Assembly: GCA_963575645.1 (NCBI GenBank)
Contig: OY754468.1
Location: forward strand, 5,146,001-5,210,000
Direction of reading: 5' to 3'
Source of the DNA: Xanthostigma xanthostigma
Taxonomy: Eukaryota > Arthropoda > Insecta > Raphidioptera > Raphidiidae
Length of the DNA stretch: 64,000 bases
The position numbers and the translations under genes were made by a program. Below the pieces are notes generated by a model. The model worked only from the letters and a program-made list of their open reading frames with translations. It had not been told where the DNA came from and made no database searches. This document shows positions 949 to 35,856 of the stretch, piece after piece (position 1 is the stretch's first letter; each line of letters opens with the position of its first letter).

Positions 949-3900
949 TTAAGTTTTTCAGCAACTTCCTCGAGAATTGGTGCCAGTTCTTTGCAAGGTC
1001 CGCACCAAGGTGCATAAAAATCTACAAGTACGTATTTCGATTCATCGAGGGTAACTGAATCATAGTTGGAGCTGACCAAAACTTTGACCGGCTTCTTGTC
1101 CCAGTCTGCTGGCAAATCTTGACTTAGCAAGTAAATTTCGAGTTGTTTATTGACAAATGCCTGCACAAAGGTTCTAATATTGTTCTCGTTGATTTCTTTA
1201 GCTTCAAGTTTATATTTTTCTTCACCATTTTTCCCGTAAGTCTGAATACGTATCGCGGGCACATCTTGCTTTTTTACACCCATGCTTTCGAGTAAATGTT
1301 GGTGGTCTTCAGAGTCGACATTAATTGCGACGAATCGAATCTATCACAAATGTTTAAAATTAAACTCTGATTAACCATTTGTATCGTAAATATTGGACAA
1401 AAAGCTGAAATTCTTATTTATTTCAGTGGGCAGATATTTGCATGATATTTCTTAGCGGATTTTTCGCCTTGCGCATCATTACGCGCAGTGCAAGAATCTC
1501 AAAATTTCTGCCCGTGTGGTGTACAGGCACTCCTCAACTTACGAACACCTTGTGTTCCCGGGACTCGTTTTTAAGTCGGATCAATAGATAGAGATTAGAA
1601 TGTATGGGGTAATACATATATGGATTATGTTACAAACTCCCCGTTGAGATGACAAAGAAGTTCGTGAGACGACAATTGACTCGTTATTCTAACAAAAACA
1701 CACCGATTGTCGTGGGAGACAACAATCGGCTTCATTGTTGTTCCAAAAACAGGCATAAGTAAAAAAGGCTTTGTTGTCAAATTCCAGACAACAATGAAAT
1801 TAACAAAGCAAAGAACTATCCAGAGCCTATAAAAACTACGGGATAGATTAGTGGAGACACAGTCACACAGGGACAGTCATACAGTGTCCCTCATCGAGTG
1901 ATACATAAATTCGACATAAATTAACAGTCAGTGAATAATGCTGAGGTAACTGCTGAAATAAATAGTTTAGTATAAATAATCTCCTGTAGATAAATAAATA
2001 AATGAACTGTGTAAATAATAGTGTACGAAATAAATAGAATTGTATATAGCAAATAAATAACTGTGTTAAATAAATTTTGGTGTGTTCCCGTGTTGTAAAT
2101 AATCTTGTGTATATAGTGACTTTGTATTCTTCATTAGTTATTATTTTATTAGTTAGAACTGTTGTTTGTTTCTATTACGTTTAGAGAACAGCTTTTTAGT
2201 TTGTTTATATGTTCTGTTAAAGTTTTGCTATTGTAAATAAACATTTTCCACCACGAACTAGAACAGTTTTGCTACAATATTTTTTCGTTTCGTCAAGGAT
2301 TTTTGTTGGCCATGAAAAGGGCCGATGTAAAACGGTTTTGTTGTTTCGTATATTTTTATTGGCCTGAAAAGGGCTGATGTAGAAAAATTTTACTGTATCA
2401 TTGTTGACTTTTCTGAGGTAATAGCTTTTGAAGGAGGATATGACTCCTTGGTCCATTGGCTGGAGTGGAGAGGTAGTGCTAAGCGGTTGGGTTGTGGGTG
2501 AATTTCATTGGTCTAATTACCACTGATCCGACTGTTCGTAAGCCCAGAGCGTTCGTCAATCGGAGAGTACCTGAATACTATTTTTCTTTATACTTCGGTC
2601 GAAAGTACGTACTTCCGGTATCAACTTTAAAGCAAAAAGTCTAGCGTGTGTTTAATCCTACCGATACACAAATTTTAGACTTTCTGCCTTAAAATTTATG
2701 CCGGAAGTACGTACTTTCGTCCAAGGTCTAAAGAGAAAAGAATGTTTTACTGAATATTTTTTAATTTTCCATTCAAAACTTACGTCTCTGAACTCCTTGG
2801 CAACAGGTTTAGCTTCACTAACATATTTATCGAAATTTCCCGCTTGTTTTGATAAGAACATGTAAAGAATTGGTTTGTCAAAATAATACAAGACCTCCCT
2901 TTGGCCAGCATCGTCCACATCTGTTATAAAATGTTCAGATTCAATTTGCAAAAATTTTCTGAGTTCTTCATCGTTGAAGTCACCTTCAAATGTTGCGTTT
3001 CCATCGTCGAACTAAAGACAATTATTATTTTTTTCAGAAAGGATTGTCAAAAAATCTGATTTGACAATGACCTTAGATTGTTTCAAATCGACCCTGTTTG
3101 AAAAATAATATCTACATGTAGGTATTTAACATTATTATTTTATATATTTTCTACTTCGAACCGAGCGGGGTGGCGTAGTGGCGAGAGCACTAAACTCGCA
3201 TTCGGGAGGTACCGGGTTCGAATCCCGGCGGAGTCAGATGTGGCTGGGAGTTTGTCCCACTGCCTCTCGCCGAGAAACGGTAATTCCTGTACCGGCCATC
3301 TTGTTGAGGTTTTCCATGGTTTCCCTGAACAATTCCACATAAATATCGAGATGGTTCCTTATTCAAGGCCATGGCCGATTACCTGTCAAACTCCTATGCT
3401 CAAAATTTGCCTACCTTATCCTAATTTCCTAAAAATTCCTTCATTCGTCCATTGCTATTAATTGGAAAATAGTAATGGTGCGAATGGCGTCTGTTATGAC
3501 ATAAAGTCGAGAAACGGACGTTAAACGCATTATTATTATTATATTTTCCACTTCGAAAACACATTTTTATACATATTTTGATCAAAATTTAGCTTGAAAA
3601 TATGACATCAGTACGAACACTGTAATTATATGTTCACAATAGGTTATTCTCAAATCAAATTTGACAATGCTTTGTGCAAGCCAGCATAACACTATTCATG
3701 CAATAGCGTTGTTCTGTATTTTTATAGCATCATCAGGGACCTCATAACGAACTAAAGTTTTATGCTGGCCGAATTTTGAAAGAACTATTTCACGTCATAA
3801 TATGATTTATTAATACTTTTACATGCATTAAATTAATTATTCTAGGTTGACTATGAATTCTGAGGCTGATGGTGCAATAAAAAAATTAAGGAGGCACAGG

Positions 3901-6900
3901 GCGGCTGTACCGCAAATTTTAAGTGAGAAAACATTTTGCAAATGTATAAAAATGGGTCACCGATATTTTATTACTAAGCTTAGAAAAAAACTGCTGAACC
4001 AATTTAAGAAAAAAATTTGTGATACAATCCTGAATGATCAAACTCGGTTTACAAATGCTAGAGATATGAGATAACATATAGGTACTAAGAAACCTTTTTT
4101 TAAGTCAGTTAAAAACAACTGAATCGATTTAAAAAAAATATATATGGGACTAATTTGCAATGTTTCCTTGTTTACTTTTGTGAATTGTGTCACAGTCCCG
4201 TTGAGGGGTTTTGTTCCCCTATTTTGATAAAAAGAGTGACCTATTAAGTAGAAGGTCACATCTACGTCAATATTAGAATTATTAATAACTAGCCGTTAGC
4301 TGCGGCGTCGCACGCGATTTAGATGAAACCTAAGTTCCCATTATTTGGCATACTTAGTTACTTTTTTCTCGACGTGGACCTTCTTAATAAATTTCAAAAT
4401 TGATGACATCCACGTGATCAACGTCCTGACAAACTTTGAAAACGACAGCCATGTAGATTTTTAGACTATTTGCCTCTTTTCACCCTCTGAAGGGATTGTT
4501 TTTAAAAAAGCATAAACACGTGTTTATTTATTTGTAGACAGGAGTAATCCTGCGCATTTTCGAATTGATACCTATCTTATATGATTTCTCCTTGCAAATT
4601 TTTAACCCCCGTTACGCCCTTTTGGAGGCTGAATTTCTAAAAATCTGTTCTTAGCGGATGCCTACGTTATAATAACTATATGTGTGCCAAATTTCAGCCC
4701 AATCCGTCCAATGGTTTGAGCTGTGCGTTTATAGATCAGTCAGTTAGTCAGTCAGTCACGGTTTCCTTTTATATATTTAGCAAATCAGAATCCGTTGCAT
4801 GTTTCACCTTTGGCCAGGTATACCTTTTTAAAAACTTTGACGGTGTTTTCTTCAGCATTAAATTCAGAAAATACAGCGTCTGCGGATGTGATTCCAAAAA
4901 GTATTACATCAGCCTTAACTGCCACAGACAAGAATGTCTGTGCTTCGTCGGACTCCAGATCTTTGAAGAAACCGATTGCCACCACCGGACCAAACTCTAT
5001 GAACGATTTTGCGTCCTCGACGGATGTCAGCACTTTAGCAGGTGGGCCTACTTTTTTAAATAGCCATTCGACCATGGCTTCGGCTTTCATATTACCTGTG
5101 CATATTAAGAAATAATATAAATATATATAATGTAACAGACAACAATCAGCTTGTTGTTCTAACAATGTAACACAGATTGTTATGGGGCAACAAACGGCCT
5201 GTTGTTCTACAATGACACACGGATTGTTGTGGGACAACAATTGGCTTGATTGTTCAAACGATAACAATATGCGTAGGTAAAAATATTTTTATCAAAAAAA
5301 TTGAACCGACTTCAAAATATGCACTAAAAAGTAAAAAATAATTGCGTATTGAAATGTTTTGGAGGCTGTGTCAGCCAAAATGAAATCTATTCCGAGAACT
5401 AGAGATATGTAAGATTTAAATTGCTACTTTAGAATTCCGATGTGACACCGACTCCAAAACATTTCAATACGCAATTATTTTTTACTTTTTAGTGCATATT
5501 TTGAAGTCGGTTCAATTTTTTTGTTAAAAATATTTTATTTATCTCTTTTTAGTGTTAGATATTTATTCAATAAATTATGCAGTTATTTTATGATTATTGC
5601 AATGGGTAAAATTTGAGAGTTTCCCTCGATTTCTCCGGATTCCACCATCAGATCCTGACTTGGTTCCGATGGGACCACCTCGGAAGTGCACTCTTTCGAA
5701 TAAAAAAAAATTTGAAAATCGGTCCATAATTAACGGAGAAATTGGTGAACATACATTAAAAAAAAAAAGAAAAAAAATATACAGTCAAACATAGAACCTC
5801 CTCCTTTTTTGAAGTCGGTTAAAAAAAGGCTTTGTTGCCAAATTCCAGACAACAATGAATGCAAGAAAAAGAAAGAATTACCCAGCGCATATATATACCA
5901 CCGCGATAGCTCAGAGGACGGTCAATCATGCATTGTGCTTCTTCGAGTTAACAATCGACAAATAGTTGTGACAAATTGACAGTCAGTACCGTGAACAGTA
6001 CTAAGGTAACTGCTGAGATAAATAGATAAATGAACTGTGTAAATAAACAGTGCGCGAAATAAATAGTTCGAAGTGGTTAATAGACCAATGATTTCAATTA
6101 TATAAATCTAGTTTAACATAAATACTCACTTGAATATAGTCATATAGTGTTTAGTTTACATAAATAGTGACTTTGTATTCTTTATTACTTATTCTTTTAT
6201 TTTATTGGTTAGAACTTGTTGTTTTGTTTCTGTTACGTTATAGAGAAGTGCTTTTAGTTTGTTTGTTTATTTGTTTGTTAACGTTTCACTATTGTAAATA
6301 AATATTTTCCACCAAGAACTAGTTTTGTTAAAATAATATTGTTACGCATGCCAGCCGCCACTGGCATTTGTAAATGCAAATAGAAGGAGTGTTGCACGCC
6401 ATCGACACTGCGTGCATTGGTAGAAGCAGGTAGTCTTGAGTATTAGTAGAAAATCAAATTTTTTGACGATACTTTCTGCAATCCACCATAAGAATGTGTG
6501 AAAAGGAATTGTTTTGTTGGAAAATTTTCATTTAGAATCGTTTGTTTACAAGGTGAAGTGTTAGGGTTCCTTAGTTAGGTTTTTTGAATTTGTGTAACGC
6601 TTCTTTTATGTTATGTTTAACAATAATTTTTTAACCTGACTTACCGTTATATTCTATTGCTACACCTTCACGATACAGTACGAGGGTTGGAAAGCTCATA
6701 ACATGAATAGTTTTAAACAAGTCTCTATTATCTCTTACGCTTAGCTCAGCTAAAAGTATTTTTGTTGGTTTCTCTTCTAAAATAGTCGCCAGTTTTTCAA
6801 GTTCTTCTGCTAATTTTTCTTTATACCAAGGCAAATCTAAAATAAAGTTGTGCATTTTTTAAACACATATCCTCTTTTCATCTTCAAAATAGCTTTAAAA

Positions 6901-10201: not shown

Positions 10202-10688
10202 TTTTGATTTTTTATAGTGAATTTTTTCATATAATATGTACTACGCTTGGCAAAATACTGTTAATTTTTTAACTAAGAGCGGATATTGTTTGCGATTTGT
10301 GTGACTTTTAATTACTTTGATTAAATACCGGATGCTCTTTTTACAAAGTTAAGTAGCCAGTGGTGTGGTTCAAAATTATTTTTTATAAAATATATTTACC
10401 GTATGTACTTTAGATTCCACTTGACTTATATTTATATGTCAAGTATAAAAATCAAGTCAAGTCAAATAGTTCCTTATACAAAACTTATTTGTAAATTATA
10501 GATGCTCACATAGCCGTAGGCAGGGGGGGTGTTTTGTGGGTTCACCCCCCCCGAAATGCCTTAGCCAACCCACCATTTTATACACTAAAATATGTTCGAC
10601 TCTTTTCTCGGATAATTGGATTCCACGTTTTTCGGAACGAGTAAAATCGAAATGTAACGCATTGTTAATAAATTAAACGAATCATTAA

Positions 10689-11215
10689 GGTAGTACGAAC
10701 ACCAAGGCAATTTTAAATAAAAGGCTTGATTTTTTTTTATATGAATTTGGACTAAGTCTAAACCAATTCTGAAAATTTAGGGGGTTTGCCCGATTATTTA
10801 AATAAATCGGTGTCTTCAAAAGTAGACATATTTAACATTGGGCTTTATGGTAAAACGGTAGATGGATAATATGTTTTCATTGATTTCTCCAAAACTAGTC
10901 GGTGGAAATTAAAAAAAACTATTTAAATTAAAGTTGAAACCTTAATAAATTATTGAAAACAAAAAAAAACCGTTGTGCACGACTAATTAAAAAGATATTT
11001 AATTAAAAAGATTTAATATCTTTTTAATTAGTCGGGCACAACAGTTTTTTTTTTGTTTTCAATAGTTTATTAAGGTTTTAACTTTAATTTAAATAGTTTT
11101 TTTTTTAATTTCAACCGACTAGTTTTGGAGAAATCAATGAAAACATATCATCCATCTACCAAAATATAAAAAAATCAAGCCTTTTATTTAAAGTTGCCTT
11201 GGTGCTCGTACTACC
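10689..11215. mobile_element. TTAA-flanked long foldback element, upstream of gene 1
   Basis: About 527 bp with arms opening GGTAGTACGAACACCAAGGC and closing GTGCTCGTACTACC, flanked by TTAA at 10685-10688 and 11216-11219. The arms fold nearly to the centre, where AATTAAAAAGATATTTAATT repeats meet. A TTAA target is characteristic of piggyBac-type transposition, but the ends do not let me assign it. Confidence 0.75.
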
Positions 11216-12017: not shown

Positions 12018-12020
<3 letters not shown>

Positions 12021-12100: not shown

Positions 12101-12654
12101 ATAAACATTTCCAAAAATGGTGCCAAACTTCTTAGAAACTTATGAAACGTCGAGAAATTTTGGTCCGACCCCTAGGTCCCGCCATCCGACCGACGCCAAT
12201 AGTGTAAGTGCCTTATGGCAAATACACTAATAAAGATATTGTACGGGCTGAAGGTTCCATTTTTTCCGTTATTATATTAATTATCTAAAGGTCATTATAA
12301 CTTTTTTTATATGCATTTTACGAGTCCTAACTAAAAACAACACATTCAATGTACTAAGTGAAAACACATTTTTTGAGTACACTTTCAACTTTATGAGATG
12401 AGCTCAAAACATTATTTTTGCGAAAATCTCAATAATCATCATTTTACGTTCGAGTGCCAATGGGAGAGCTGTGAGAGTGACAGAGAGGCGGAAATTAAAG
12501 GGGTTCGCAGTTTCCACGGAACCCTTAATTAAATCGGTATTTGAACTAAAACTTCTTTACGCACGCTTGACTTGGGGAGTACCTAAGCTGGTGAATGCTT
12601 GACGCGAGATTTACGGAAGTTGAGAGGGAGATATAAGTTAGTGAAGATAGAAAT

Positions 12655-12815
12655 AGGATGCCAAATACTTCACTGGCTAGTGGCGCCATCATGTGGCCGA
12701 TACAAATACTTCACTGGCTAGTGGCGCCGTCAGGTGGCCGAAAATATAAGCAGTACTAACAATAGAATGACACATACTTTACTTGCCAGTGGCGCTATCG
12801 GGTGACAGAAAAAAG
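12655..12815. repeat. Three ~52-60-bp direct repeats with a GTGGCGC core
   Basis: Repeats contain ACTTCACTGGCTAGTGGCGC (two units, from about 12666 and 12709) and ACTTTACTTGCCAGTGGCGC (about 12775). Also at about 26370-26510 between genes 2 and 3. They may be remnants of a transposon or clustered protein-binding sites. Confidence 0.6.
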
Positions 12816-13164
12816 TTTAGTAAACAATAGTCGGATTTTTCGGGGTTTTTCCGACTCACACAATCCACTAAAATAGAAAACATGACGTTAACTGAGAATC
12901 AAATGGCGGTTCTTATTGCATCAAATCGAAAAATGTTTGGTACAAAAGTTATTTTCTTTGACCCAAAGAACAAACAATCCGAGAAAAAAATATGGGCTCC
13001 TATTTAAAAAAGTGGAGGTGACTTTGATATCTTGAAGATACCTCAACCAAATGATAAAAAAATGCACTAATATTCTTCCCCCTTGATGCTGTTGTTTGAA
13101 ACTTTTTTCAAGAACTCTTCCACTATGAAAAAAAGGTCCATCCTGTAGATATCATTAACACGTC

Positions 13165-13170
13165 TTTATT
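13165..13170 (-). terminator. candidate poly(A) signal for gene 2
   Basis: AATAAA on the minus strand about 210 nt past the gene 2 stop, conserved at the matching place behind gene 3. Another AATAAA lies at 13357-13362, inside the former coding tail, and could serve instead. Poly(A) hexamers are frequent by chance in such AT-rich DNA. Confidence 0.3.
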
Positions 13171-13380
13171 TATAAAGATATTTTAGATACAAATAGTCTT
13201 TAAAATGACAAATTATTGTAAACGCAATACCTATTTTAATTTAATTAAATATATATTATGCATAGAATTTTCAGACGACATAATTCTAACAATAATTATT
13301 TAATTGTTGTCTTCTCTTCCAGTAGAAAAAGAGTCTTTTGGTGTTCAGAGTGTTTCTTTATTTTCATCTTTGTAATTATT

Positions 13381-22300: not shown

Positions 22301-24626
22301 AGCGTAGTTAGCGGATAGGTTAATCCGGCACTGACCGTATTATAGCCTTCTTTTTGTTTTCAAGTGTTTGCAAAACACAAAAAAAAAATTTGAAAAGAAG
22401 TTTGACCCTGCAGGCCATCCCTGTAACTTCCCGCTATTTTCGAGTTCAAAACGCTCAAAAATATATAAAATATAGCAAGAAGTTTATTTTTTAGCTCTTT
22501 GAGTTAAAAAAAAAACACTTTGTTGCGAAATTTTCGTTCACGATATCTCATGAACAAATGAACCGATATTGATGCGATTTGCGGCAGTCGACGCAATTTT
22601 TTAACCTAAAAAAGTAATTTAATACAGAAAAATCGATCTCATACGAATTTTACGAGCAATTTAAAAAAAACACGTTTTTAAAAATTTTTCGTTCACGATA
22701 TCTCGTGAACAAATGAGCCGATTTTGATGCGGTTTGCTGCAATCGACGCAGTTTTTTTAACCTAAGAAAGTAAATTATTACAAAAAAATCGATTTGATAA
22801 GAATTTTACGAGTAGGTACCTAATTTTAAAAAATTACTTTTTTCCTAATTTTTCGTTCACGTTATCTCATGAACAAATGAACCAATTTTGATATGGTTTG
22901 CGGCGATCGACGCAGTTTTTTTAGCCTAAGAAAGTAATTTATTACAAAAAAATCAATCTGATAACAATTTTAAGAGTAATTTTTAAAAAACACTTTTTTA
23001 CGATTTTTTCGTTCACGGTATCTCGTGAACAAATGAACCGATTTTGATGCGGTTTGCGGAATTCGACGCAGTTTGTTAAGGAGAAGAGCTGATTAGTTTT
23101 TGGAATTAATCGGTTTAGTAGTTTAGAAAATTTTTTACAAAAACAAATTTTTAAAAATTTTTGAAACTTGTTTTTTTAAGATTTTTCAAAATTTTTTGGG
23201 CCGAATCGTTTCAAATTTTCAGGAAGTCTAAGTTCACCAAGATCACGTCAGATGCCGCAAACCGCGTTTCAGTCGGACACTCCCTTCAAAAGATATAAAA
23301 GGTTTACATACATACACACACACCCCCACACACACACACACACACACATACAGCCCTACGGACATCATCGCCAAAATAGTTTCAATAGCTTCCTAGGACC
23401 TCAAAACGTCGAGATCTGGCGAAAACTCGATTTTCGAAAATCGGGGTGAAACCAATAACCGATTTTTGAAAAAAAATTTTTTTTTTTTTTTTTTTAAAGC
23501 GGGAAGTTAAAAACTGGGAACTAATCGCTTTTTTTTAAGAATTATTCTTAGACATATTTTTGTATTTTTTTAATGAGGGCATTTTATTGTTAAGTTTTTT
23601 TTAGTATTCCGCTCAAACAAAACACTTCGGTGTCCGTCCGTCTGTCTGTCACGGGGAATTGAAACTATTTGACTTAAAAAATTGAAGTTTGGCACAGAGG
23701 TCCAATCACAGGCGTCAAGTATAAAAAGTTGAATTTTGATTCTGAGGGGGTGAAATGAGAAATAAAAAAAGAAACTTTTTTTAAGGGCACCGTGCAGGAT
23801 GCCAAATGAAAGATTATGAAATCACGAACTCAACAATATATTTGTGGTCGATTTATTTTCACTTTTGTATATTTTTGGGGAGAAACGTTCAAAAATCGTT
23901 TGTACCCCTGGTTTTTGCTAAAACTATCGCTCAACAATATCACGAACATTGAGAATTAGGTGTAGATTGATTGAAAATTATCAAGATTGAAAAATCCTAG
24001 CACCATTAATTGTTATTTCATTAACACTTTCAAATTTTAGACTAAATTCAATTCCCGGAAATCCCCCTTCCCGTATTTATGCCACTAACTATCACCGCCG
24101 GAACTTAAACTCGAATCGTCCACTATAATGGCGGATGAGTTGTCAATTACTCAACAGTGACATATCCAGAGTAATTGATAACTCATCCGCCGCGATAGTG
24201 AAAGATTCGGGTTGTGTCTCGACGGTGACAGCGTTTAAAAATAAATTTTTCTAATACAGCATTGTAACTATGGATGTTTCTAGATAATTATAGCAAATAT
24301 AGTTATCATAATGCTAAAAAATAACGTGTCTCAAACAGTCCTACGAATTCTACATTTTCAACATTTCATTCTAAGATCGTGTCGGCCAATTGGCTGGAAT
24401 TTTTTTAAATCGATAAAAAATTATAAATAAATGAAATGAAAGACTGCATATAAATATACTTACACAAACTTATAAAAACATAATCATTTTCTTCGATAGT
24501 TTGGTTGAAATTATCGCCGTTTAATTCAAGTATTTTTGTATTTGTATTTTCGACGTCTGAATTTTCACCCAGAACCTCGAAAACCGAGACCAAAAATATA
24601 TAAGATATAATAAAAAAACACTTCAT
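13381..24626 (-). CDS. PDI-family gene 2, complete, short tail
   Basis: Six coding exons: 24464-24626, 21070-21261, 19270-19541, 16927-17154, 15081-15472, 13381-13651 (163, 192, 272, 228, 392 and 271 nt), predicting 505 residues. Signal peptide, a (inactive, YKEK at 59-62), b, b' and a' (CGPC at 398-401, cis-Pro P442 in YLPTL) follow in PDI order. It is almost identical to gene 1 in exons and introns; for example GVQKQ replaces GVKKQ in b'. The acidic tail ends TQDNA at a TAG where gene 3 has TCG and reads on for 16 more residues, and 15 bases of the old tail are missing downstream. No KDEL-type ER-retrieval signal is present. Gene 1 starts 3.2 kb downstream and gene 3 ends 2.4 kb upstream, all head to tail. 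Lengths match typical PDI (about 500). It looks intact and expressible; whether it is expressed is unknown. Confidence 0.93.
13738..14130. repeat. hAT-like terminal sequence in intron 5 of gene 2
   Basis: The stretch opens near 13752 with CAGGGCCGTACCGACC, a hAT-style terminus (CAGGGC...), and is followed by GC-richer sequence. The same block lies at 27474-27830 in gene 3. I cannot find a matching inverted end or target duplication, so the family is tentative. Confidence 0.35.
15760..16416 (+). mobile_element. Solo LTR, intron 4 of gene 2
   Basis: Orthologous copy of the LTR at 1628-2276, nearly identical and at the same intron site, duplicated together with the gene. LTR-retrotransposon fossil without internal sequence. 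Confidence 0.75.
16734..16870. repeat. Foldback repeat beside exon 4, gene 2
   Basis: Counterpart of 2592-2728, with the CGAAAGTACGTACTTCCGG and TGGAAGTACGTACTTTCG arms. Confidence 0.65.
17344..17777 (+). mobile_element. tRNA-derived SINE, intron 3 of gene 2
   Basis: Orthologous copy of the SINE at 3161-3542 with the same 15-bp flanking duplication (17329-17343 and 17778-17792). It is 434 bp long because it keeps a segment deleted in gene 1, with a longer ATT tail. Confidence 0.88.
18602..19229 (-). mobile_element. Helitron-like element, intron 3 of gene 2, internally duplicated
   Basis: Counterpart of 4289-4781, with an internal tandem duplication: the CAAATTTCAGYCCAATCCGT block occurs at about 18990 and again at about 19135. 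This accounts for part of the longer intron 3 in gene 2. The terminal CTAG has become CTAT. Confidence 0.6.
19577..20750 (+). mobile_element. LTR fossil in intron 2 of gene 2, with nested repeat
   Basis: Counterpart of 5131-6332. It carries the same nested repeat (about 19729-20247) and ends in AGTGTTACA. Confidence 0.65.
19729..20247. mobile_element. Nested 'GAAGTCGGTT' repeat, gene 2
   Basis: Counterpart of 5281-5820 at the same site within the intron 2 LTR, with small internal deletions. Confidence 0.6.
21948..22333. mobile_element. hAT miniature element, intron 1 of gene 2
   Basis: Counterpart of 7526-7911 with the same length, ends and ACCGTATT duplication, copied along with the gene. 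Confidence 0.9.
22424..23509. mobile_element. DNA element with TAACTTCCCGCT ends, intron 1 of gene 2
   Basis: Counterpart of 8003-9084 with the same four tandem units and CA tract, nearly identical. Confidence 0.65.
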
Positions 24627-26874
24627 TTTTGATTTTTTATAGTGAATTTTTTCATATAATATGTACTACGCTTGGCAAAATACTGTTAATTTTTTAACTA
24701 AGAGCGGATATTGTTTGCGATTTGTGTGACTTTTAATTACTTTGATTAAATACCGGATGCTCTTTTTACAAAGTTAAGTAGCCAGTGGTGTGGTTCAAAA
24801 TTATTTTTTATAAAATATATTTACCGTATGTACTTTAGATTCCACTTGACTTATATTTATATGTCAAGTATAAAAATCAAGTCAAGTCAAATAGTTCCTT
24901 ATACAAAACTTATTTGTAAATTATAGATGCTCACATAGCCGTTGGCAGGGGGGGTGTTTTGTGGGTTCACCCCCCCCGAAATGCCTTAGCCAACCCACCA
25001 TTTTATACACTAAAATATGTTCGACTCTTTTCTCGGATAATTGGATTCCACGTTTTTCGGAACGAGTAAAATCGAAATGTAACGCATTGTTAATAAATTA
25101 AACGAATCATTAAGGTAGTACGAACACCAAGGCAATTTTAAATAAAAGGCTTGATTTTTTTTTATATGAATTTGGACTAAGTCTAAACCAATTCTGAAAA
25201 TTTAGGGGGTTTGCCCGATTATTTAAATAAATAAATGTCTTCAAAAGTAGACATATTTAACATTGGGCTTTATGGTAAAACGGTAGATGGATAATATGTT
25301 TTCATTGATTTCTCCAAAACTAGTCGGTGGAAATTAAAAAAAACTATTTAAATTAAAGTTGAAACCTTAATAAATTATTGAAAACAAAAAAAAACCGTTG
25401 TGCACGACTAATTAAAAAGATATTTAATTAAAAAGATTTAATATCTTTTTAATTAGTCGGGCACAACAGTTTTTTTTTTGTTTTCAATAGTTTATTAAGG
25501 TTTTAACTTTAATTTAAATAGTTTTTTTTTTAATTTCAACCGACTAGTTTTGGAGAAATCAATGAAAACATATCATCCATCTACCAAAATATAAAAAAAT
25601 CAAGCCTTTTATTTAAAGTTGCCTTGGTGCTCGTACTACCTTAAACTCTTTCGTCGAAATCTACGTCGGCTGCCTTTAAAATAAATTTGTATTTATGTGA
25701 AATTATAATATATGTATGCTAATTTTCAAATAAAGTTATTTTTTAGTGTGTCTGGTCCAGAGCTCGACTATCCCCGGCCTTGGATGCTCAACAGCTAAGA
25801 CTATTATCGCCAATATCAACATTTTTTTAACGTTTTATGTGATTTAGATAATAGAAAAATGGAACCTTTAGCCTACATTTTGAGCCTTGAAGAAGTCTCA
25901 ATTTGTAGACAAAACGTTGGCAAGAAAAATAAAGATATTGTACGGGCTGAAGATTCCATTTTTTCCGTTATTATATTAATTATCTAAAGGTCATTATAAC
26001 TTTTTTTATATGCATTTTACGAGTCCTAACTAAAAACAACACATTCAATGTACTAAGTGAAAACACATTTTTTGAGTACACTTTCAACTTTATGAGATGA
26101 GCTCAAAACATTATTTTTGCGAAAATCTCAATTTTGTTTTTGAATCATCATTTTACGTTCGAGTGCCAATGGGAGAGCTGTGAGAGTGACAGAGAGGCGG
26201 AAATTAAAGGGGTTCGCAGTTTCCACGGAACCCTTAATTAAATCGGTATTTGAACTAAAACTTCTTTACGCACGCTTGACTTGGGGAGTACCTAAGCTGG
26301 TGAATGCTTGACGCGAGATTTACGGAAGTTGAGAGGGAGATATAAGTTAGTGAAGATAGAAATAGGATGCCAAATACTTCACTGGCTAGTGGCGCCATCA
26401 TGTGGCCGATACAAATACTTCACTGGCTAGTGGCGCCGTCAGGTGGCCGAAAATATAAGCAGTACTAACAATAGAATGACACATACTTTACTTGCCAGTG
26501 GCGCTATCGGGTGACAGAAAAAAGTTTAGTAAACAGTAGTCGGATTTTTCGGGGTTTTTCCGACTCACACAATCCACTAAAATAGAAAACATGACGTTAA
26601 CTGAGAACCAAATGGCGGTTCTTATAGCATCAAATCGAAAAATGTTTGGTACAAAAGTTATTTTCTTTGACCCAAAGAACAAACAATCCGAGAAAAAAAT
26701 ATGGGCTCCTATTTAAAAAAGTGGAGGTGACTTTGATATCTTGAAGAAACCTTAACCAAATGATAAAAAAATGCACTAATATTCTTCCCCCTTGATGCTG
26801 TTGTTTGAAACTTTTTTCAAGAACTCTTCCACTATGAAAAAAAAGGTCCATCCTGTAGATATCATTAACATGTC
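24627..26874. other. Intergenic region, gene 2 start to gene 3 end
   Basis: No gene found. It matches 10202-13164 closely, less the ~720 bp segment found only there. It contains the foldback 25114-25640 and the three direct repeats near 26370-26510. Confidence 0.7.
25114..25640. mobile_element. TTAA-flanked long foldback element, upstream of gene 2
   Basis: Counterpart of 10689-11215, flanked by TTAA at 25110-25113 and 25641-25644. Confidence 0.75.
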
Positions 26875-26880
26875 TTTATT
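26875..26880 (-). terminator. candidate poly(A) signal for gene 3
   Basis: AATAAA on the minus strand about 175 nt past the gene 3 stop, at the position equivalent to 13165-13170 behind gene 2. Support is positional only. Confidence 0.3.
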
Positions 26881-27054
26881 TATAAAGATATTTTAGATAC
26901 AAATAGTCTTTAAAGTGACAAATTATTGTAAACGCAATACCTATTTTAATTTAATTAAATATATATTATGCATAGAATTTTCAGACGACATAATTCTAAC
27001 AATAATTATTTAATTGTTGTCTTCTCTTCCAGTAGAAAATGAGTCTTTTGGTGT

Positions 27055-30000
27055 TCAGTGTGTTTCTGTGTCCGCTTCTTTGTTTTCATCTTTGTCATTA
27101 TTCGAAGCATTGTCTTGGGTTATTACGTCTTCGGATTTAGTAACTTCTTCATTGTTGGTAGTACTTTCTTCCTCTGGAGACTCTGTTACTTGATAAGTAC
27201 CTTCAGATTCTATGAACTTGATAAGTGCTTCAAACGTGCGCGCGCCACTGTAGTGGATGGGATCTTTATTGCCTTTCACGTAAAATTTCAATGTTGGTAA
27301 ATAGTGTATTTCAACCTGCTTCAACTCATTCAGATCACTATTTACTTTGGCTATGACGACATCATCACGCGACCTTTAAAAAATAAGAACAGTTACGATT
27401 CTGTAGTACTGAATTTTAAGAATTTTTTATATGAAACTAGCCGCTAGCCGCAACAATGTTTCATAGTCCATTCGCAGGGCCGTACCGACCACGGGGCAAG
27501 TGGGGCGGTGCCCAGAGTCCTCCAACAGAAAGGGGCCCCGAAGGAGCCTCTTTTCGTTGGCTACTTTTCAGGGGTTTAAAGGTGTTCACATTCGTTCTTT
27601 ACTTTTTGGGGCCCTTCCACAAATTACCTTTAGAATTGTATGTAAAAAACAGACTGATTTTTCCGAGAAAAAATTTGTATTTGCTCCCTCTTTCCTTTTC
27701 CGAGAGAGAGGGAGCAAGAACAAATCGCTATTGGCGGAGGAAATCTCGTGAATCGGTAGATGTCTCCGTTAGACACTCTTCTCTCATCTCTGTCTAATCG
27801 ACAGAGAAGCTCGGGTGCTACACGCACCAGTTTTATCTATGTTTATTCAATAGATACAAAATTTCGGTTCGGAATTCCTTTTTTTTTAATTCCAAACTCG
27901 CGATATACCAAATACGCCTGTTCTCACTAGGAACTAGCCTACCAAACCGTATATTTTTCCGATTTTTCGTGTAGACTTGACTTATTTATGGTTCGCTGAA
28001 AAATGTATCTACCTTAACGATCTATCATTTGAATATGTATAACAGTTCCATCACGACGACGAAAGCAATGTAAGACACGAATGACAATCATAATTTTGAA
28101 CATAATAATAAGTAATGGCCTTTTTTAAGCACTTTTTAAATTCTACGTTGGGGGCCCTAATTTTACTTTTTGCTCCGGGGCCTCCGAGATTCCAATTACC
28201 ATTCCACAGCAATAGCAATAAGCTCCACTACTGCTATTGCTGTGGAATGGTAATTGGAACCTCCACCATTTTGGTTCGTCTTGCTTTACGGGGCTGTACC
28301 CCGTTCGGTAGCAACGTACTAAAACGGTGCTTGTTTGAAGGCAGGAGACCTTCTAATAAAGAGAATTTCGGTTTTTGTAAGTTAACGTTCTATTACAAAA
28401 CTGTGCTTGTTTGGAGACAGTGACTGACCAAGAAAACGGAGGTTAATGTTGCATTACAAAACCGTGGTTTTTTGGAGGCAGTACTGCTTTCTACTGAATA
28501 AGGAAACGGAAATAAGCGTCTCGAATAGTCCTGGTCCCTTGTGAGAAGACACTCAGTCCATTCGTGATTTGGTACCCAAATATTTGAGTTGCAAGGGGTC
28601 GAACCTGAAGCTCTTCCGCAGCACATCATTCCATGTTATTGTCAGAGTATGTTTCCAAACAGTCCTGAGAATTTAGCCCTTTCAAGAGCACAGCCCACTG
28701 TTTAGAAACAAATGTTCCTAGAATATGGTCACCATTATCACCCTGAGGGAACAAGTGATTGTAAATCATTGCTTTTATATGATAAATATTTACTTAAGTT
28801 TTTCAGCAACTTCCTCGAGAATTGGTGCCAGTTCTTTGCAAGGTCCGCACCAAGGTGCATAAAAATCTACAAGTACATATTTCGATTCATCGAGGGTAAC
28901 TGAATCATAGTTCGAGCTGACCAAAACTTTGACCGGCTTCTTGTCCCAGTCTGCTGGTAAATCTTGACTTAGCAAGTAAATTTCCAGTTTTTTATCGACA
29001 AATGCCTGCACAAAGGTTCTAATATTGTTCTCGTTGATTTCTTTAGCTTCAAGTTTATATTTTTCTACACCATTTTCCCCGTAAGTCTGAATACGTATCG
29101 CGGGCACATCTTGCTTTTTTACACCCATGTTTTCGAGTGTATGTTGGTGGTCTTCAGAGTCGACATTAACTGCGACGAATCGAATCTATCACAAATGTTC
29201 ACAATTAAACTCTGTTTAACCATTTGTATCGTAAATATTGGACAAAAAGCTGAAATTTTTATTTATTTTAGTGGGTAGATATTTGCATAATATTTCTTAG
29301 CGAATTTTTCGCCTCGGGCATCATGACGCGCAGTGCAGGAATCTCAAACTTTCTGCCCGTGTGGTGTATAGGTACTCGTCAACTTACGAACACTTTACGT
29401 TCCGAGGACTCATTTGTAAGTCGGGTTTGTTCGTAAGTCGGATCATTTATAGAGATTAGGATGTATGGGTAATACTTATATGGATATTTTGTTGTTGTTT
29501 CGTCATAGATTTTTGTTGGCCATGAAAAGGGCCGATGTAAAACAGTTTTGTTGCTTCGTAAATTTTTATTGGCCTGAAAAGGGCTGATGTAGAAAAATTT
29601 TACTGTGTCATTGTTGACTTTTCTGAGGTAATAGCTTTTGAAGGAGGATATGACTCCTTGGTCCATTGGCTGGAGTGGAGAGGCAGTGCTAAGCGGTTGG
29701 GTTGTGGGTGAATTTCATTGGTCTAATTACCACTGATCCGACTGTTCGTAAGCCCAGAGCGTTCGTAAATCGAAGAGTACCTGAATACTATTTTCCTTTA
29801 TACTTCGGCCGAAAGTACGTACTTCCAGGATCAACTTTAAGGCAGAAAGTCTAGCGTGTGTGTAATCCCACCAATGCACAAATGTTAGACTTTCTGCCTT
29901 AAACTTTATGCCGGAAGTACGTACTTTCGGCCAAGGGCTAAAGAAAAAAAAATGTTTTACTGAATATTTTTAAATTTTTCATTCAAAACTTACGTCTCTG

Positions 30001-33000
30001 AACTCCTTGGCAACAGGTTTAGCTTCATTAACATATTTATCGAAATTTCCCGCTTGTTTTGATAAGAACATGTAAAGAATTGGTTTGTCAAAATAATACA
30101 AGACTTCCCTTTGGCCAACATCGTCCACATCTGTTATAAAATGTTCAGATTCAGTTTGCAAAAATTTTCTGAGTTCTTCGTCGTTGAAGTCACCTTCAAA
30201 TGTTGCGTTTCCGTCGTCGAACTAAAGGCAATTATTATTTTTTTAGAAAGGATTGTCAAAAAATTCGATTTGACAATGACCTTGGATTTTGAACATATCT
30301 TCATGTATGAAAAGCAATGTAGAGTTTTAAATCGATCCTGCTCGAAAAATAATTGATTAATTGAAATGTATTTAAAATTAATTATTATTTTTATATTCTC
30401 CGTTTCAAAAACACATTTTTGTACATACAGTTTGATAAAAAATTAGCTTGAAAAACGATCTTTTTCTATGTAGATAAAGCATTTGTTTTTGTCTGAGAAC
30501 AGTCTAATGTTCAACATGACAGGGATTTTGAATATCAGTGTGAACACTGTAATTATATGATCACAATCTAAGATTATTGTCAAGTCAAATTTTTGACAAA
30601 GCTTTAACACTATTAATGCAATAGCGTTGTTCCGTATTTTTTATAGCATCATCAGACAGCTCTAACGAACTTAAGAAATTGTAAAAGTTTTATGCTTGCC
30701 GAGCTTTCATTTTGAAAGAGCTATTTCACGTCATAATATGATTTATTAATACTTTTACATGTATTAAATTATTCTAGGTTGACTATGAACTCTTTGAGGA
30801 GGATGGTGCAATAAAAAAATGAAAGAGGCACATGGAGGATGTACCGCAAATTTTAAGTGGTTTACAAATTTCTCTTTTTTGAAGTCAGTTTTTTTTTTAA
30901 TATACGGTTTGTTGGCTTCTACGTCTGTAATACGCGTAATTAGCCATGACTGTGTTATAAAATTAATCTAAAAATTTTAGTAAATAAACAAAAATACTTT
31001 ACACAAAACACTGGGATACATGAAGGATGGACAAGGGATTTTCTTGGAAGGAACCATGGAGGTGCAAGAGAGCCGGGAACACGGACGGCGGGGATAGGCT
31101 AGGTAAGACACACGAGGTAATGTTAGTACATAATTATTTGAGTATACTATTTCTAATATAACGACCCTATCTAGATTTATCATACTCGAATGTTAATATT
31201 ATTTAGAAAATTAAGGATTTCAGAGTAAATTTTTTTGTTTTCGGATTTTAGCACATCGGGATACCACAAAGGTAATTTAATTCCAGCTTCCGTAATGGAA
31301 TTGGATAGCTGGATTCTGTGTCTCTCATAAATAGGGCACACAAACAGTATATGTATCGCATCGTTGAAGTCAGTTAAATACGACTGAATCGATTTAAAAA
31401 AAATAATTATATGGAATTAATTTGCAATAATTATATTTTGGTGTTTACTTTTGTGAATTGTGTCACAGACCCATTGAGGCGTTTCATTCTGTTTTGATAA
31501 AAACAGTGACCTATTAGGTAAAAGGTCACATCGATGTCAATATTAAGTACTTCGCACGCGATTGAGACAAAACATGCGTTACTATAATTTGGCATAGTTT
31601 CTCCTTTCTCGACGTGGACCTCCTAATAAATTTCAAAATTGATTTCATCCACGTGATCAACGTCCTGGCAAACTTTGAAAATGACGAATTGATACATATC
31701 TATCTTATATGATTTCTCCATGCAAATTTTGAACCCCCGTTACACCTTTTTGCAGGTTGAATTTCCAAAAATCTGTTCTTAGCGGATGCCTACGTCATAA
31801 TAACTATTTGTGTGCCAAATTTCAGCCCAATCAGTTCAGTGGTTTGAGCTGTGCGTTAATAGATCAGTCAGTTAATCAGTCAGTCAGTCACGGTTTCCTT
31901 TTATATTAATAAACCAAGAGAAAGATTTTTATTTTCTGTATTATTACAATGGATATAATAATAATCATTACGATTAGATTCCAAATACAGTATATTTTTT
32001 CACTGAATTAGTGAAAGCATAATAATATTAAACGATTATCGTCATAATATTTTTTTTAGAAGGCTTATATATAAGAAAAATTTAAATGTCACTGTCGGGA
32101 CATGAACCCGAAACAACCAATTTCGCGTTGGCTGAGTTACATTACTCTACACTCTACAGTGCCCACGACAGTTAGTTTTTGATTTCTCTCATATATAATA
32201 GCACAATGCACTGCAGAATCGACTACCTGCGAGAGCTATTTTAATAACAACACTACCCGACAGTGACATTTAAATTTTTCTTATATATAAGCCTTCTAAA
32301 AAAAATATTATGACGATAATCGTTTAATATTATTATGCTTTCACTAATTCAGTGAAAAAATATGCTGTATTTGGAATCTAATCGTAATGATTATTATTAT
32401 ATCCATTCCTTTTATATATTTAGCAAATTAGAATTCGTTGGCTAGGTATACCTTTTTAAATACTATAACAGTGTTTTCTTCAGCATTAAATTCAGAAAAT
32501 ACAGCGTCTGCGGATGTGATTCCAAAAAGTATTACATCAGCTTTAACTGCCACAGACAGGAATGTCTGTGCTTCGTCGGACTCTAGATCTTTGAAGAAAC
32601 CGATTGCCACCAACGGACCAAAATGTATGAACGATTTTGCATCCTCGACGGATGTCAGCACTTTAGCAGGTGGACCCACTTTTTTAAATAGCCATTCGAC
32701 CATGTCTTCGGCTTTGTCATTACCTGTGCATATTAAGAAATAATATTAATTATATAATGTAACAGAGACAACCCAGCAGGCGACAACAAATAATTTCGTG
32801 AGGCAACAATCGCCTCGTCATTCTAACAGCGACACATAGATTGTTGTGGGACAACATCGGCTTGTTGTTCTAGCAATTATACACATATTGTTATGGAGCT
32901 ACAATCGGCTTGTTGGTCTAACAATGACACACGGATTGTTGTGGGACAACAATCGGCTTGATTGTTCAAACAATAACAAAATGCATAGGTAAAAAAAGGA

Positions 33001-35856
33001 TATGTTGCCAAATTCCAGACAACAATGAATGCAAGAAAAAGAAAGAACTACCCAGCGCATATATATACCACCGCGATAGCTCAGAGGACGGTCAGTCATA
33101 CATGTGCTTCATCGAGTTAACAATCGACAAATAGTTGTGACATAAATTGACAGTCAGTACCGTGAACAGTACTGAGGTAACTGCTGAAATAAATAGATAA
33201 ATGAACTGTGTATATAAACAGTGCGTGAAATAAATAATGCGCAGTGGTTAAAAGACCATTGATTTCAATTATATAAATCTAGTTTAACATAAATAATAAT
33301 CTCTTGTATATAGTCATATATTGTTTAGTGTACATAAATAGTGACTCTGTATTCTTTATTACTTATTCTTTTATTTTATTAGTTAGAACTTGTTGTTTTG
33401 TTTCTGTTACGTTATAGAGAAGTGCTTTTTATTTGTTTGTTAACATTTCACTATAATTGTAAATAAATATTTTCAACCTGGCGTGCGTAACAATATTATT
33501 GTAACACAACTGTTCTAGTTCAGTTGTGTTACAATAATATTGTTACGCACGCCAGCCGCCACTGCTATTAGTAAAGGCAGGTAGAAGGAGTGTTAGGCAC
33601 GCCATCGACACTGCGCGCATTGGTAGAAGCAAGCAGAAGAATATTAGTAGAAAATCAATTTTTTTGGCGATACTTTCTGCAATCCACCATAAGAATGTGT
33701 GAAAAGGAATCGTTTTCATTTAGAATCGTTTGTTTACAAGGTGAGAAGTGTTAGGGTTTCTTAGTTAGGTTTTTTGAATTTGTGTAACGCTTCTTTTATG
33801 TTATGTTTAACAATAATTTTTTATCCTGACTTACCGTTATATTCTATTGCTACACCTTCACGATACAGTACGAGGGTTGGATAGCTTCGAACATGAATAT
33901 TTTTAAACAAGTCTCTATTATCTCTTATGCTTAGCTCAGCTACAAGTATTTTTGTTGGTTTCTCTTCTAAAATAGTCGCCAGTTTTTCAAGTTCTTCTGC
34001 TAATTCTTGTTTATACCAAGGCAAATCTAAAATAAAGTTGTACATTTTTTTAACACATATTTTTAGCCTCGTCTTTTCGTCTTCAAAATAGCTTTAAAAT
34101 CGCGGGGCAGTTGAACAAAAAAAAAAAAAAAACAATTAAAACGGACGATTCCAAAAAGTTGCCGTTGAAAACCTTTAGAGGCGCTGTCATCGTTATAAAT
34201 GCAATATTTTAACCATATTATACAGTTCGAGTCTTCGAGAACGGAACATTCATCCCGGGTTGGGACATGATTAAATGCAATCTGTTTGCAAATATATAGG
34301 GTAACCGGTAGTTGTTCGTATTCTTTTCGGGAGAAGAAACTATGACTAATTTAAAATGATTTAACCTTATCACTTGGGGGTCGGAAACCCTTATTTTTTT
34401 GATAATGACACATCTGTGAAGAATTTCTATGTTATTTTTTTATTTATTAAATTTTAACACACAACATAAAATCTAACAGTAAATTTCAAGTTTTTAGCTT
34501 TAGGAAGGTTGACCAATTAGTAAGCCATCAGATCATGGAAAAAGTCAGGCCAAAATGAGAGAGTATATATTTTTTTTTAATTTTGTAACTCCCAAAATTC
34601 TGATTTTTGTAAAAAGAAAACCGAAGTATATTTTTTCGAAAACGCATTTCTGACCCCCGAGTGATAAAGGTTAAATCTTTCCAAATTAGTCATAGTTTCT
34701 TCTCCCGAAAGGAATATGAGCAATAACCTTCTTTTTGCTTTTCAAGTGTTTGCAAAACACAAAGAAAAACTGGGAACTAATCGCTTCTTTTTTTTAAGAA
34801 ATATTCTGACATATTTTTGTATTTTTTTTAATGAGGGCATTTTATTGTTAAGTTTTTTTTTAGTATTCCGTTCAAACAAAACATAATATGAAATCACTTC
34901 GGTGTCCGTCTGTCACAGGCAGTTTGAAACTATTTGACTTAAAAAATTGAAGTTTGATTCTGAGGGTAAATTTCAGAGGGTGAAATGAGAAATAAAAAAA
35001 TAAACTTTTTTCAAGGGCACCGTGCAAGGATGCCAAATGAAAGCTTATGGAATCACGAATTCAACAATATATTTGTGGTCGTTTAATTTTTCACTTTTAT
35101 ATATTTTTTGGGGAGAAACGTTAAAAAATCGTTTGTACCCTTAATTTTTGCCAAAACTATCGCTCAAAAATATCACCAATATTGAGAATTAGGTGTAAAT
35201 TGATTGAAAATTCTCAGGATTGAAAAATCTTAGCACTATTAGTTGTTATTTAATTAACACTTTCAAATTTATGACTAAATTCAATTCCCGGAAACCCTCC
35301 TTCTGGTATTTATGCCACTAACTGTCACCGCCGGAACTTAAACTCGAATCTTCCACTATAATGACGAATTAGTTGTCAATTACAGATTACATATCTAAAG
35401 TAATTGATAACTCATCCGCCGCGATAGTGAAAAATTCGGGTTGTGTCTCGACGGTGACAGCGTTTAAAAATAAATTTTTATAATATAGAATTGTAACTAT
35501 GGATGTTTCTTGATAATTATAGCAAATATAGTTATGATAATGCTAAAAAATAACGTTTCTCAAACAGTCCTACGAATTGTACAATTTTCATCACTTCATT
35601 CTAAGATCGTGTCGGCCAATTGGCTGGAATTTTTTTAAATCGATAAAAAATTATAAATAAATGAAATGAAAGACTGCATATAAATATACTTACACAAACT
35701 TATAAAAACATAATCATTTTCTTCGATAGTTTGGTTGAAATTATCGCCGTTTAATTCAAGTATTTTTGTATTTGTATTTTCGACGTCTGAATTTTCACCC
35801 AGAACCTCGAAAACCGAGACCAAAAATATATAAAATATAATAAAAAAATACTTCAT
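27055..35856 (-). CDS. PDI-family gene 3, complete, most diverged copy
   Basis: Six coding exons: 35694-35856, 33835-34026, 32452-32723, 29994-30221, 28794-29185, 27055-27373 (163, 192, 272, 228, 392 and 319 nt), predicting 521 residues. Same signal peptide with small changes (MKYFFIIFY). Domain a has YLPWYKQEL, so YKQE replaces CGHC and is itself different from the YKEK of genes 1 and 2. Domain b opens [11 protein letters not shown], nearer to standard PDI than the [11 protein letters not shown] of gene 1 or the [11 protein letters not shown] of gene 2. The a' domain keeps [14 protein letters not shown]. The tail is strongly acidic and ends NKEADTETH before TGA, so no KDEL or HDEL is seen. 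This is the upstream-most copy of the array, and its introns lack several insertions shared by genes 1 and 2. A dual chaperone-thiol role in the ER is an inference from the family. Confidence 0.93.
28190..28259. repeat. 28-bp perfect palindromic duplication, gene 3 intron 5
   Basis: The 28-bp stretch beginning TTCCAATTACCATTCC at 28190-28217 is repeated as an exact reverse complement at 28232-28259, with a 14-bp spacer. The matching place in genes 1 and 2 has only the first arm. Confidence 0.9.
29803..29935. repeat. Foldback repeat beside exon 4, gene 3
   Basis: Counterpart of 2592-2728, with CGAAAGTACGTACTTCCAG and CCGGAAGTACGTACTTTCGG arms. Confidence 0.65.
30891..31361 (-). mobile_element. 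5'-truncated LINE in intron 3 of gene 3
   Basis: Minus-strand non-LTR retrotransposon tail, shown as poly-T at 30891-30898. It is flanked by a 12-bp target duplication, TTGAAGTCAGTT (30879-30890 and 31362-31373). The minus strand from 31361 to 31180 encodes a peptide containing [16 protein letters not shown], ending at TGA. The HILxxCPxY..R pattern is typical of the extreme C terminus of Jockey/R1/I-type ORF2 proteins. Genes 1 and 2 lack it. Confidence 0.8.
31545..31904 (-). mobile_element. Helitron-like element, intron 3 of gene 3
   Basis: Shortened counterpart of 4289-4781, with the GACTGACTGACTGATTAACT region and CGTGACTGACTG start. It is broken near its 5' end by a foldback insertion (31905-32406); the last bases resume at 32407-32424. 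Confidence 0.55.
31905..32406. mobile_element. Foldback element with ~150-bp arms, gene 3 intron 3
   Basis: Arms at about 31950-32100 and 32258-32406 are almost perfect reverse complements (ATGGATATAATAATAATCAT ... ATGATTATTATTATATCCAT). The host word TCCTTTTATAT flanks both sides, suggesting a target duplication. The loop contains, on the minus strand, GGGTTCATGTCCCGAC, similar to a tRNA B box. Absent from genes 1 and 2. Confidence 0.75.
32758..33477 (+). mobile_element. LTR fossil in intron 2 of gene 3, no nested repeat
   Basis: Counterpart of 5131-6332 but without the nested repeat: the sequence runs straight through the site near 32990. Its 3' end is altered by a local palindrome at 33480-33553. 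Being present in all three genes, this is the oldest dated LTR insertion here. Confidence 0.65.
33480..33553. repeat. 33-bp perfect palindromic duplication, gene 3 intron 2
   Basis: GGCGTGCGTAACAATATTAT... at 33480-33512 is the exact reverse complement of 33521-33553, with an 8-bp spacer. Genes 1 and 2 have only the right arm. Confidence 0.9.

What the first reader, a model, noticed from the sequence alone, without database searches (positions are those of the whole stretch)
949..35856. Tandem array of PDI-like genes whose first catalytic site is lost in every copy
Splicing exon 1 to exon 2 gives FISLYLPWY followed by KEK (genes 1, 2) or KQE (gene 3), exactly where PDIs have FYAPWCGHC. Both cysteines are gone in all copies, yet the thioredoxin-fold framework and cis-Pro remain, while a' keeps CGPC. 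The loss predates the duplication, and the two residues have since diverged (YKEK, YKQE). This points to a specialised single-site oxidoreductase or a chaperone, expanded by duplication.
Basis: partly seen in the sequence, partly recalled or inferred. Interest (0 to 1): 0.75.

Follow-up and report, generated by a model that had tools for sequence, protein, structure and literature searches.

The report
Tandem half-dead secreted-looking PDI genes
Three neighbouring copies of a protein-folding enzyme gene, probably from an insect, have all lost the first of two active sites and carry a thioredoxin-like second one, and the two complete copies lack the usual cell-retention tail, yet selection still largely preserves the protein.

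Summary
Three head-to-tail minus-strand genes encode PDIA1-type (a-b-b'-a') proteins; the models have 17 exons and all 14 complete introns are GT-AG. In every copy the a site reads PW-YKEK or PW-YKQE. Against human PDI this is a two-residue deletion plus loss of both cysteines, not a four-residue swap. The site lies inside exon 2, so splicing to that exon cannot restore it; no alternative PDI-type CXXC exon was found in the window. These are not simple pseudogenes: dN/dS 0.31-0.42, no indels in the compared exons against 32, 83 and 98 events in introns. Constraint is strongest in b and a'; the a domain looks relaxed. Best reading: a single-site, probably reductase-leaning PDI chaperone, possibly secreted. 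New variant of a known kind. Organism, expression and biochemistry were not testable.

The parts
949..10201 (-). Gene 1 (5 exons seen: 10201-10039, 6836-6645, 5095-4824, 3011-2784, 1340-949); a sixth exon would lie off the window
13381..24626 (-). Gene 2, complete model, 505 aa (exons 24626-24464, 21261-21070, 19541-19270, 17154-16927, 15472-15081, 13651-13381); residue 461 Cys where gene 3 has Arg; tail 16 residues shorter than gene 3
27055..35856 (-). Gene 3, complete model, 521 aa (exons 35856-35694, 34026-33835, 32723-32452, 30221-29994, 29185-28794, 27373-27055)
6645..6836 (-). Gene 1 exon 2: dead a site PWYKEK and cis-Pro
21070..21261 (-). Gene 2 exon 2: dead a site PWYKEK
33835..34026 (-). 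Gene 3 exon 2: dead a site PWYKQE
949..1340 (-). Gene 1 exon 5: end of b' and first part of a' with [14 protein letters not shown]
15081..15472 (-). Gene 2 exon 5, same CGPC site
28794..29185 (-). Gene 3 exon 5, same CGPC site
13381..13651 (-). Gene 2 exon 6: rest of a' ([10 protein letters not shown]...), ends ITQDNA, no KDEL
27055..27373 (-). Gene 3 exon 6: rest of a', acidic tail ends DTETH, no KDEL
12229..25928 (.). Duplication unit of about 13.7 kb (copy 2); copy 1 lies to its left, ending at 11507, and copy 3 to its right, 25928 to about 36076

Best explanation
These are tandem duplicates derived from a PDIA1 gene (P4HB-type PDI). They make a secretory-pathway protein with one live thiol-disulfide site. 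Shown by sequence: an a-b-b'-a' layout with an N-terminal hydrophobic leader; an a domain without either cysteine, without the human buried Glu (Ser53 here) and without the human Arg of its TAGREAD segment (Met in genes 1 and 2, Asp in gene 3); a' with CGPC and a buried Asp in 3 of 3 copies and, in gene 3, the a' Arg; no KDEL-type C-terminus in genes 2 and 3; no other cysteine in gene 3. Inferred: b and b' hold the client and a' does the thiol chemistry. CGPC plus Asp makes a' more reducing than CGHC, so the protein acts as a reductase, isomerase or holding chaperone rather than as the main oxidase. The a domain survives as a fold or scaffold under weak constraint. Without a retention tail the protein is probably secreted, or retained only by partners.
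For: PDIA1 origin (gene 3 as query): best solved relatives are human PDI chains (4ekz, E 6e-99), ahead of PDILT (6e-49) and PDIA3 (1e-47); TIGR01130 ER_PDI_fam 351.2 bits against a cutoff of 344.25. Dead a site. CGPC in 3 of 3 copies, and 0 nonsynonymous differences over residues 373-415 in 3 of 3 pairwise comparisons. Selection: dN/dS 0.31 (1v2), 0.42 (1v3), 0.35 (2v3); departure from the neutral N:S ratio p=0.010 (1v3), 0.0007 (2v3), 0.056 (1v2); 0 indels in compared exons against 32, 83 and 98 intron events; a neutral simulation gave a mean of 87 amino-acid changes (minimum 63 in 2000 runs) against 24 observed for 1v3. Constraint stronger outside the a domain: genes 1 v 3, a 14N:2S, rest 15N:15S, Fisher p=0.023. 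No C-terminus of the form [KHRQDESNA][DETN]EL-stop in six frames of the window. Precedents seen in passages: a table in PMC12781119 gives CGPC for ERdj5 Trx4; a wasp venom PDI with HDEL changed to SDEL (PMC5078806).
Against: No expression or assay data. No insect PDI was available, so the ancestral state is taken from human PDI. Redox direction is inferred from the motif alone. b' is the least conserved part (31 of 118 identical to human) and has dN/dS 0.60-0.81, which may mean a changed client or partial decay. Gene 2 lacks the a' Arg and part of the tail, so at least one copy may be decaying. A separate tail exon, a split retention codon or a retention variant outside the scanned pattern (such as KSEL) is not ruled out. 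The a-versus-rest contrast is post hoc, was tested for genes 1 v 3 only, and is affected by few synonymous differences around exons 1-2.
Confidence: 0.55

Rival explanations
1. A mainly non-redox protein: a chaperone or a structural subunit (such as a beta-like partner of a prolyl 4-hydroxylase or lipid transfer protein) in which CGPC is retained for contact rather than turnover.
For: PDI is the beta subunit of C-P4H and of MTP, and in the MTP complex its cysteines are reduced and no covalent complex is seen (passages of PMC9676403). PDILT shows that a PDI with non-classical motifs can lack oxidizing or reducing ability and still form disulfide-bonded complexes (passages of PMC3500226).
Against: CGPC, the buried Asp and the rest of residues 373-415 are unchanged in 3 of 3 copies, which suggests that chemistry is kept.
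Confidence: 0.22
2. A dispensable, slowly decaying duplicate family: one constrained copy plus recent copies on the way to pseudogenes.
For: Gene 2 has Cys461 for Arg and a stop 16 residues earlier than gene 3, and its DNA after that stop lacks 12 bases of the gene 3 tail (sequences printed); the a domain is not distinguishable from neutral (14N:2S, p=0.75).
Against: Open frames in all three models and all 14 complete introns GT-AG; no indels in the compared exons; dN/dS 0.31-0.42.
Confidence: 0.13
3. Part of the array (copies 1 and 2) is an assembly artefact: two haplotypes placed in tandem.
For: 98.2% intron identity between copies 1 and 2 is within the range of allelic divergence in insects (recalled).
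Against: Copy 3 is about 90% identical in introns and is unlikely to be allelic. Copies join end to end, with a 0.7 kb insertion only at the 1/2 junction. Even if true, the loss of the a site stands in 2 distinct copies.
Confidence: 0.1

Closest known systems
PDIA1 / P4HB (protein disulfide-isomerase)
   Same: a-b-b'-a' layout and best sequence match; gene 3 a' 54/109 and b 42/97 identical to human
   Different: a site deleted; CGPC and Asp instead of CGHC and Glu in a'; no KDEL-type tail in genes 2 and 3; gene 3 has only 2 cysteines
PDILT (PDIA7)
   Same: a-b-b'-a' PDI with no CXXC in the a domain
   Different: PDILT has SKQS and SKKC and a KEEL tail; here a' is CGPC, and gene 3 matches PDIA1 much better
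Conotoxin-specific PDI (csPDI) of cone snails
   Same: lineage-specific PDI family made by gene duplication
   Different: csPDI has CGHC in both catalytic domains (passages of PMC6275033); here one site is gone and the other is CGPC
ERdj5 / DNAJC10
   Same: has a CGPC thioredoxin domain (Trx4 in a table of PMC12781119; a table of PMC7563561, assigns the same four motifs to other domain numbers)
   Different: different domain order, J domain (recalled) and KDEL
Venom and salivary PDIs of insects (Psyttalia PDI with SDEL; planthopper LsPDI1)
   Same: insect PDIs found outside the cell
   Different: LsPDI1 has two CGHC sites and a HEEL retention signal; no a-site loss is described in the passages read

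Membership tests
PDIA1 (P4HB-type PDI) | a-b-b'-a' order of thioredoxin-like domains | tested here: met
   Pfam Thioredoxin and Thioredoxin_6 in genes 2 and 3; TIGR01130 over residues 31-497 of gene 3, above cutoff; alignment to human PDI end to end
PDIA1 (P4HB-type PDI) | closer to PDIA1 than to other PDI subfamilies | tested here: met
   gene 3, phmmer: human PDI 6e-99, PDILT 6e-49, PDIA3 1e-47; only solved structures compared, no insect sequences, no tree
PDIA1 (P4HB-type PDI) | two CGHC active sites | tested here: not met
   a: YKEK/YKQE with 2-residue deletion; a': CGPC
PDIA1 (P4HB-type PDI) | C-terminal KDEL-type ER-retention signal | tested here: not met
   ends DTETH (gene 3) and QDNA (gene 2); 0 matches to [KHRQDESNA][DETN]EL-stop in six frames of the window; the end of gene 1 is not visible
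PDIA1 (P4HB-type PDI) | N-terminal signal peptide | tested here: inconclusive
   hydrophobic leader MK(C/Y)FFII(S/F)[12 protein letters not shown] read; no predictor run
PDIA1 (P4HB-type PDI) | hydrophobic client pocket in b' | tested here: inconclusive
   b' aligns but only 31 of 118 residues are identical to human; pocket residues were not mapped and no model was made
PDILT | both sites non-CXXC (SKQS, SKKC) | tested here: not met
   a' is CGPC in 3 of 3 copies
csPDI-type expanded PDI | CGHC in both catalytic domains of duplicated PDIs | tested here: not met
   csPDI feature
ERdj5 | J domain plus several thioredoxin domains | tested here: not met
   no J domain among the Pfam families of genes 2 and 3 at E up to 0.001

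The most novel reading that the evidence does not exclude
A PDI has been converted into an exported, single-site thioredoxin-like reductase-chaperone: the a site was deleted, a' was retuned to Asp + CGPC, the KDEL tail was dropped, and the gene was amplified in tandem, perhaps to serve one abundant secretion (saliva, venom, silk or seminal fluid) of this animal.
Probability: 0.25. Interest if true: 0.62.

Novelty: new variant of a known kind. Interest (0 to 1): 0.42.

Why it matters
Classical PDI has two catalytic domains that cooperate (recalled). A naturally selected PDI that keeps only a', with a thioredoxin-like motif and without the ER tether, would be a natural test of what one site plus the b-b' core can do, and of how PDIs are recruited to secretions. 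PDILT shows that loss of sites occurs and csPDI shows that expansion occurs; I saw no description of the combination found here in the listings of ten paper searches or in passages of eight papers.

Tried and rejected
No whole genome is held for the window, so a canonical PDI elsewhere in the same genome could not be sought. Relatives were sought in viral contigs with gene 3 (13 pattern matches) and with alignment A1 (258), and in genome contigs with gene 3 (95) and with A1 (214); 0 of these were confirmed as relatives. These collections hold viruses and prokaryotes, so this says nothing about insects. No insect ortholog, tree or ancestral reconstruction was possible.

Rejected: a hidden CGHC exon. 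A tblastn of human PDI against the window found the known exons and then only chance-level hits; a six-frame scan for C[GSTAP][HPYSTQ]C gave 7 matches, the three CGPC sites and four others (CAQC three times, CTQC once) without PDI context. An ER tail on a further exon: 0 matches to [KHRQDESNA][DETN]EL-stop in six frames; variants outside that pattern and codons split by an intron were not covered. Plain pseudogenes. PDILT membership.

Results against my reading: b' is the least conserved domain (31 of 118 identical to human) and has dN/dS 0.60-0.81; gene 2 shows Cys461 for Arg and a shorter tail, and the printed DNA shows 12 bases of the gene 3 tail missing after the gene 2 stop, which the indel count did not cover because it ends at the gene 2 stop; the a domain's low synonymous divergence (2.3 differences, genes 1 v 3) inflates its dN/dS; tests used fractional counts rounded to whole numbers; genes 1 v 2 alone do not reach p=0.05 (0.056); the neutral simulation took a divergence of 0.095 that includes some poorly aligned repeat sequence. 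Domain borders were set by me. The labels of the poly-A scan came out blank through a script slip; it is not used, though AATAAA about 174 bases after the gene 3 stop can be read in the printed sequence.

Eight of the 204 ORFs, outside the PDI exons, were scanned against Pfam and gave no family at E up to 0.01.

Full report
Observation. The window (33.85% G+C, 64,000 bases, no N) carries three head-to-tail genes on the minus strand. Gene models were built from the splice signals: gene 1 at 10201->949 with 5 exons seen, gene 2 at 24626->13381 with 6 exons (505 aa), gene 3 at 35856->27055 with 6 exons (521 aa). All 14 complete introns are GT-AG, and exon lengths agree exactly between copies for exons 1-5 (163, 192, 272, 228, 392 bases).

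The a site. In all three copies exon 2 reads LPWY followed by KEK (genes 1, 2) or KQE (gene 3). MAFFT of genes 2 and 3 against human PDI, and the 11 phmmer domain alignments to PDB chains printed for the gene 3 a domain, put a two-residue gap directly after PW. The lesion is thus a deletion of two residues with both cysteines absent, rather than a four-for-four change. The human buried Glu (LLVEFYAPW) is Ser53 here (VFISLYLPW), and the human Arg of TAGREAD is Met (genes 1, 2) or Asp (gene 3), as read from the alignment and the sequences. The role of these two residues in setting cysteine pKa is recalled, not from a call. The site lies wholly inside exon 2, and only codon 55 spans the junction, so no choice of splice site to this exon can restore CGHC. 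A tblastn of human PDI found no further PDI exon, and a six-frame scan for C[GSTAP][HPYSTQ]C gave 7 matches, of which only the three CGPC sites are in PDI context.

The a' site and the tail. All three copies read [14 protein letters not shown]. Human PDI has VFVEFYAPWCGHCK there. CGPC with Asp is the thioredoxin form (recalled). Among human PDI family members a table in PMC12781119 lists CGPC for ERdj5 Trx4 (passage); a table in PMC7563561 assigns the same four motifs to other domain numbers (passage). Gene 3 has only the two active-site cysteines (398, 401); gene 2 has in addition Cys3 in the leader and Cys461, the latter where gene 3 has Arg. Gene 3 ends DTETH, gene 2 ends QDNA at a stop 16 residues earlier. 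No C-terminus of the form [KHRQDESNA][DETN]EL followed by a stop occurs in any of the six frames of the window.

What it is. Pfam finds Thioredoxin (two stretches) and Thioredoxin_6 in genes 2 and 3. For gene 3, NCBIfam TIGR01130 matches residues 31-497 above its cutoff (351.2 against 344.25 bits), and the best solved relatives are human PDIA1 chains, well ahead of PDILT and PDIA3. Identity of gene 3 to human PDI by domain, with borders set by me: a 33/104, b 42/97, b' 31/118, a' 54/109. It derives from PDIA1, but it does not meet two defining features of a classical PDI (two CGHC sites; KDEL-type tail).

Duplication history. Self-comparison (matches of 250 bases or more listed) shows a unit of about 13.7 kb: copy 1 to 11507, copy 2 12229-25932, copy 3 25928 to about 36076, with a 0.7 kb insertion only between copies 1 and 2. 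Intron identity is 98.2% (1v2), 90.5% (1v3) and 90.0% (2v3); exon identity 99.1, 96.3 and 96.25%. The shared two-codon deletion is most simply older than both duplications.

Selection. Nei-Gojobori dN/dS: 0.31 (1v2, 415 codons), 0.42 (1v3, 415), 0.35 (2v3, 505). N:S against the neutral site ratio: p=0.056, 0.010 and 0.0007. Compared exons carry 0 indels in all three comparisons; introns carry 32, 83 and 98 events. That count stops at the gene 2 stop codon: beyond it the gene 2 DNA lacks 12 bases of the gene 3 tail (sequences). A neutral simulation at a divergence of 0.095 gave a mean of 87 amino-acid changes over exons 1-5 (minimum 63 in 2000 runs) against 24 seen for 1v3. By domain, genes 1 v 3: a with leader 13.7N:2.3S, b 5N:10S, b' 10N:3S, residues 373-415 of a' 0N:2S; exon 6, genes 2 v 3, 3N:3S. 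Rounded a versus the rest, 14:2 against 15:15, Fisher p=0.023; a versus b p=0.003; a alone against neutral p=0.75. So b and the seen part of a' are held and the a domain is relaxed. Caveats: b' is also fairly loose (dN/dS 0.60-0.81), the tests are post hoc and on genes 1 v 3 only, and synonymous differences are few near exons 1-2.

How it probably works (inference). b and b' bind a client, a' does the thiol chemistry with a more reducing site, and a stays as scaffold. With no retention signal the protein may leave the cell. Precedents: a PDI in Psyttalia wasp venom with HDEL changed to SDEL (passages of PMC5078806; the same paper suggests no specific PDI expansion there); planthopper salivary LsPDI1, which has two CGHC sites and a HEEL signal yet is secreted (passages of PMC7848103); cone snail csPDIs, made by duplication, with CGHC in both domains (passages of PMC6275033). 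The passages of a survey of Conus PDIs show CGHC in the a domain of the listed a-b-b'-a' proteins, with one CKYC in an a' position (PMC4747531). PDILT shows loss of sites, with SKQS and SKKC and no ability to oxidize or reduce disulfides reported (passages of PMC3500226). A non-catalytic subunit role is the main rival; in the C-P4H-II structure the proximal cysteines of both a and a' contact the alpha subunit through disulfides (passages of PMC9676403), which the a domain here could not do.

Novelty. In ten paper searches no listed title or abstract start describes an a-dead, CGPC-a', KDEL-less PDI array. Several lists were capped well below the number of papers found (for example 15 of 137, 15 of 270, 12 of 7,107), one search found 0 papers, passages were read in eight papers only, and the library lacks most subscription journals. 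Without insect sequences I cannot say whether this family is already annotated in databases. Verdict: a real and somewhat unusual variant of a well known family, of moderate interest.

Noticed in passing
8089-8657 and 22509-23074: About 155-base unit repeated 3.6 times in intron 1 of genes 1 and 2; no such array was reported in gene 3 at the score threshold used.
   Followed up: no
10857-11160, 25282-25585, 5280-5536, 19728-19984, 49502-49932: Long self-inverted repeats (about 267-439 aligned bases, 81-91% identity) upstream of genes 1 and 2, in an intron of genes 1 and 2, and far right.
   Followed up: no
36556-36897 and 44289-44595: A 120-base tandem repeat (2.8 copies, 97% matches) with inverted relatives about 8 kb away.
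   Followed up: no
46461-47056: 230-base tandem repeat, 2.6 copies, 94% matches, open over long stretches in several frames.
   Followed up: no
3160-3546, 17343-17767, 47663-48058: Dispersed repeat in an intron of genes 1 and 2 and at 47.7 kb whose start reads by eye like a tRNA-derived SINE (GGTTCGAATCCC box).
   Followed up: no
53471-53542: Weak tRNA match (32.2 bits, Rfam RF00005) that ARAGORN does not call; possibly SINE-derived.
   Followed up: partly
5138-5259, 19586-19707, 32804-32978, 55371-55530: A 47-48 base repeat (GACAACAATCGGCTTGTTGTTC...) in an intron of all three gene copies and elsewhere, a lineage marker that might identify the organism.
   Followed up: no
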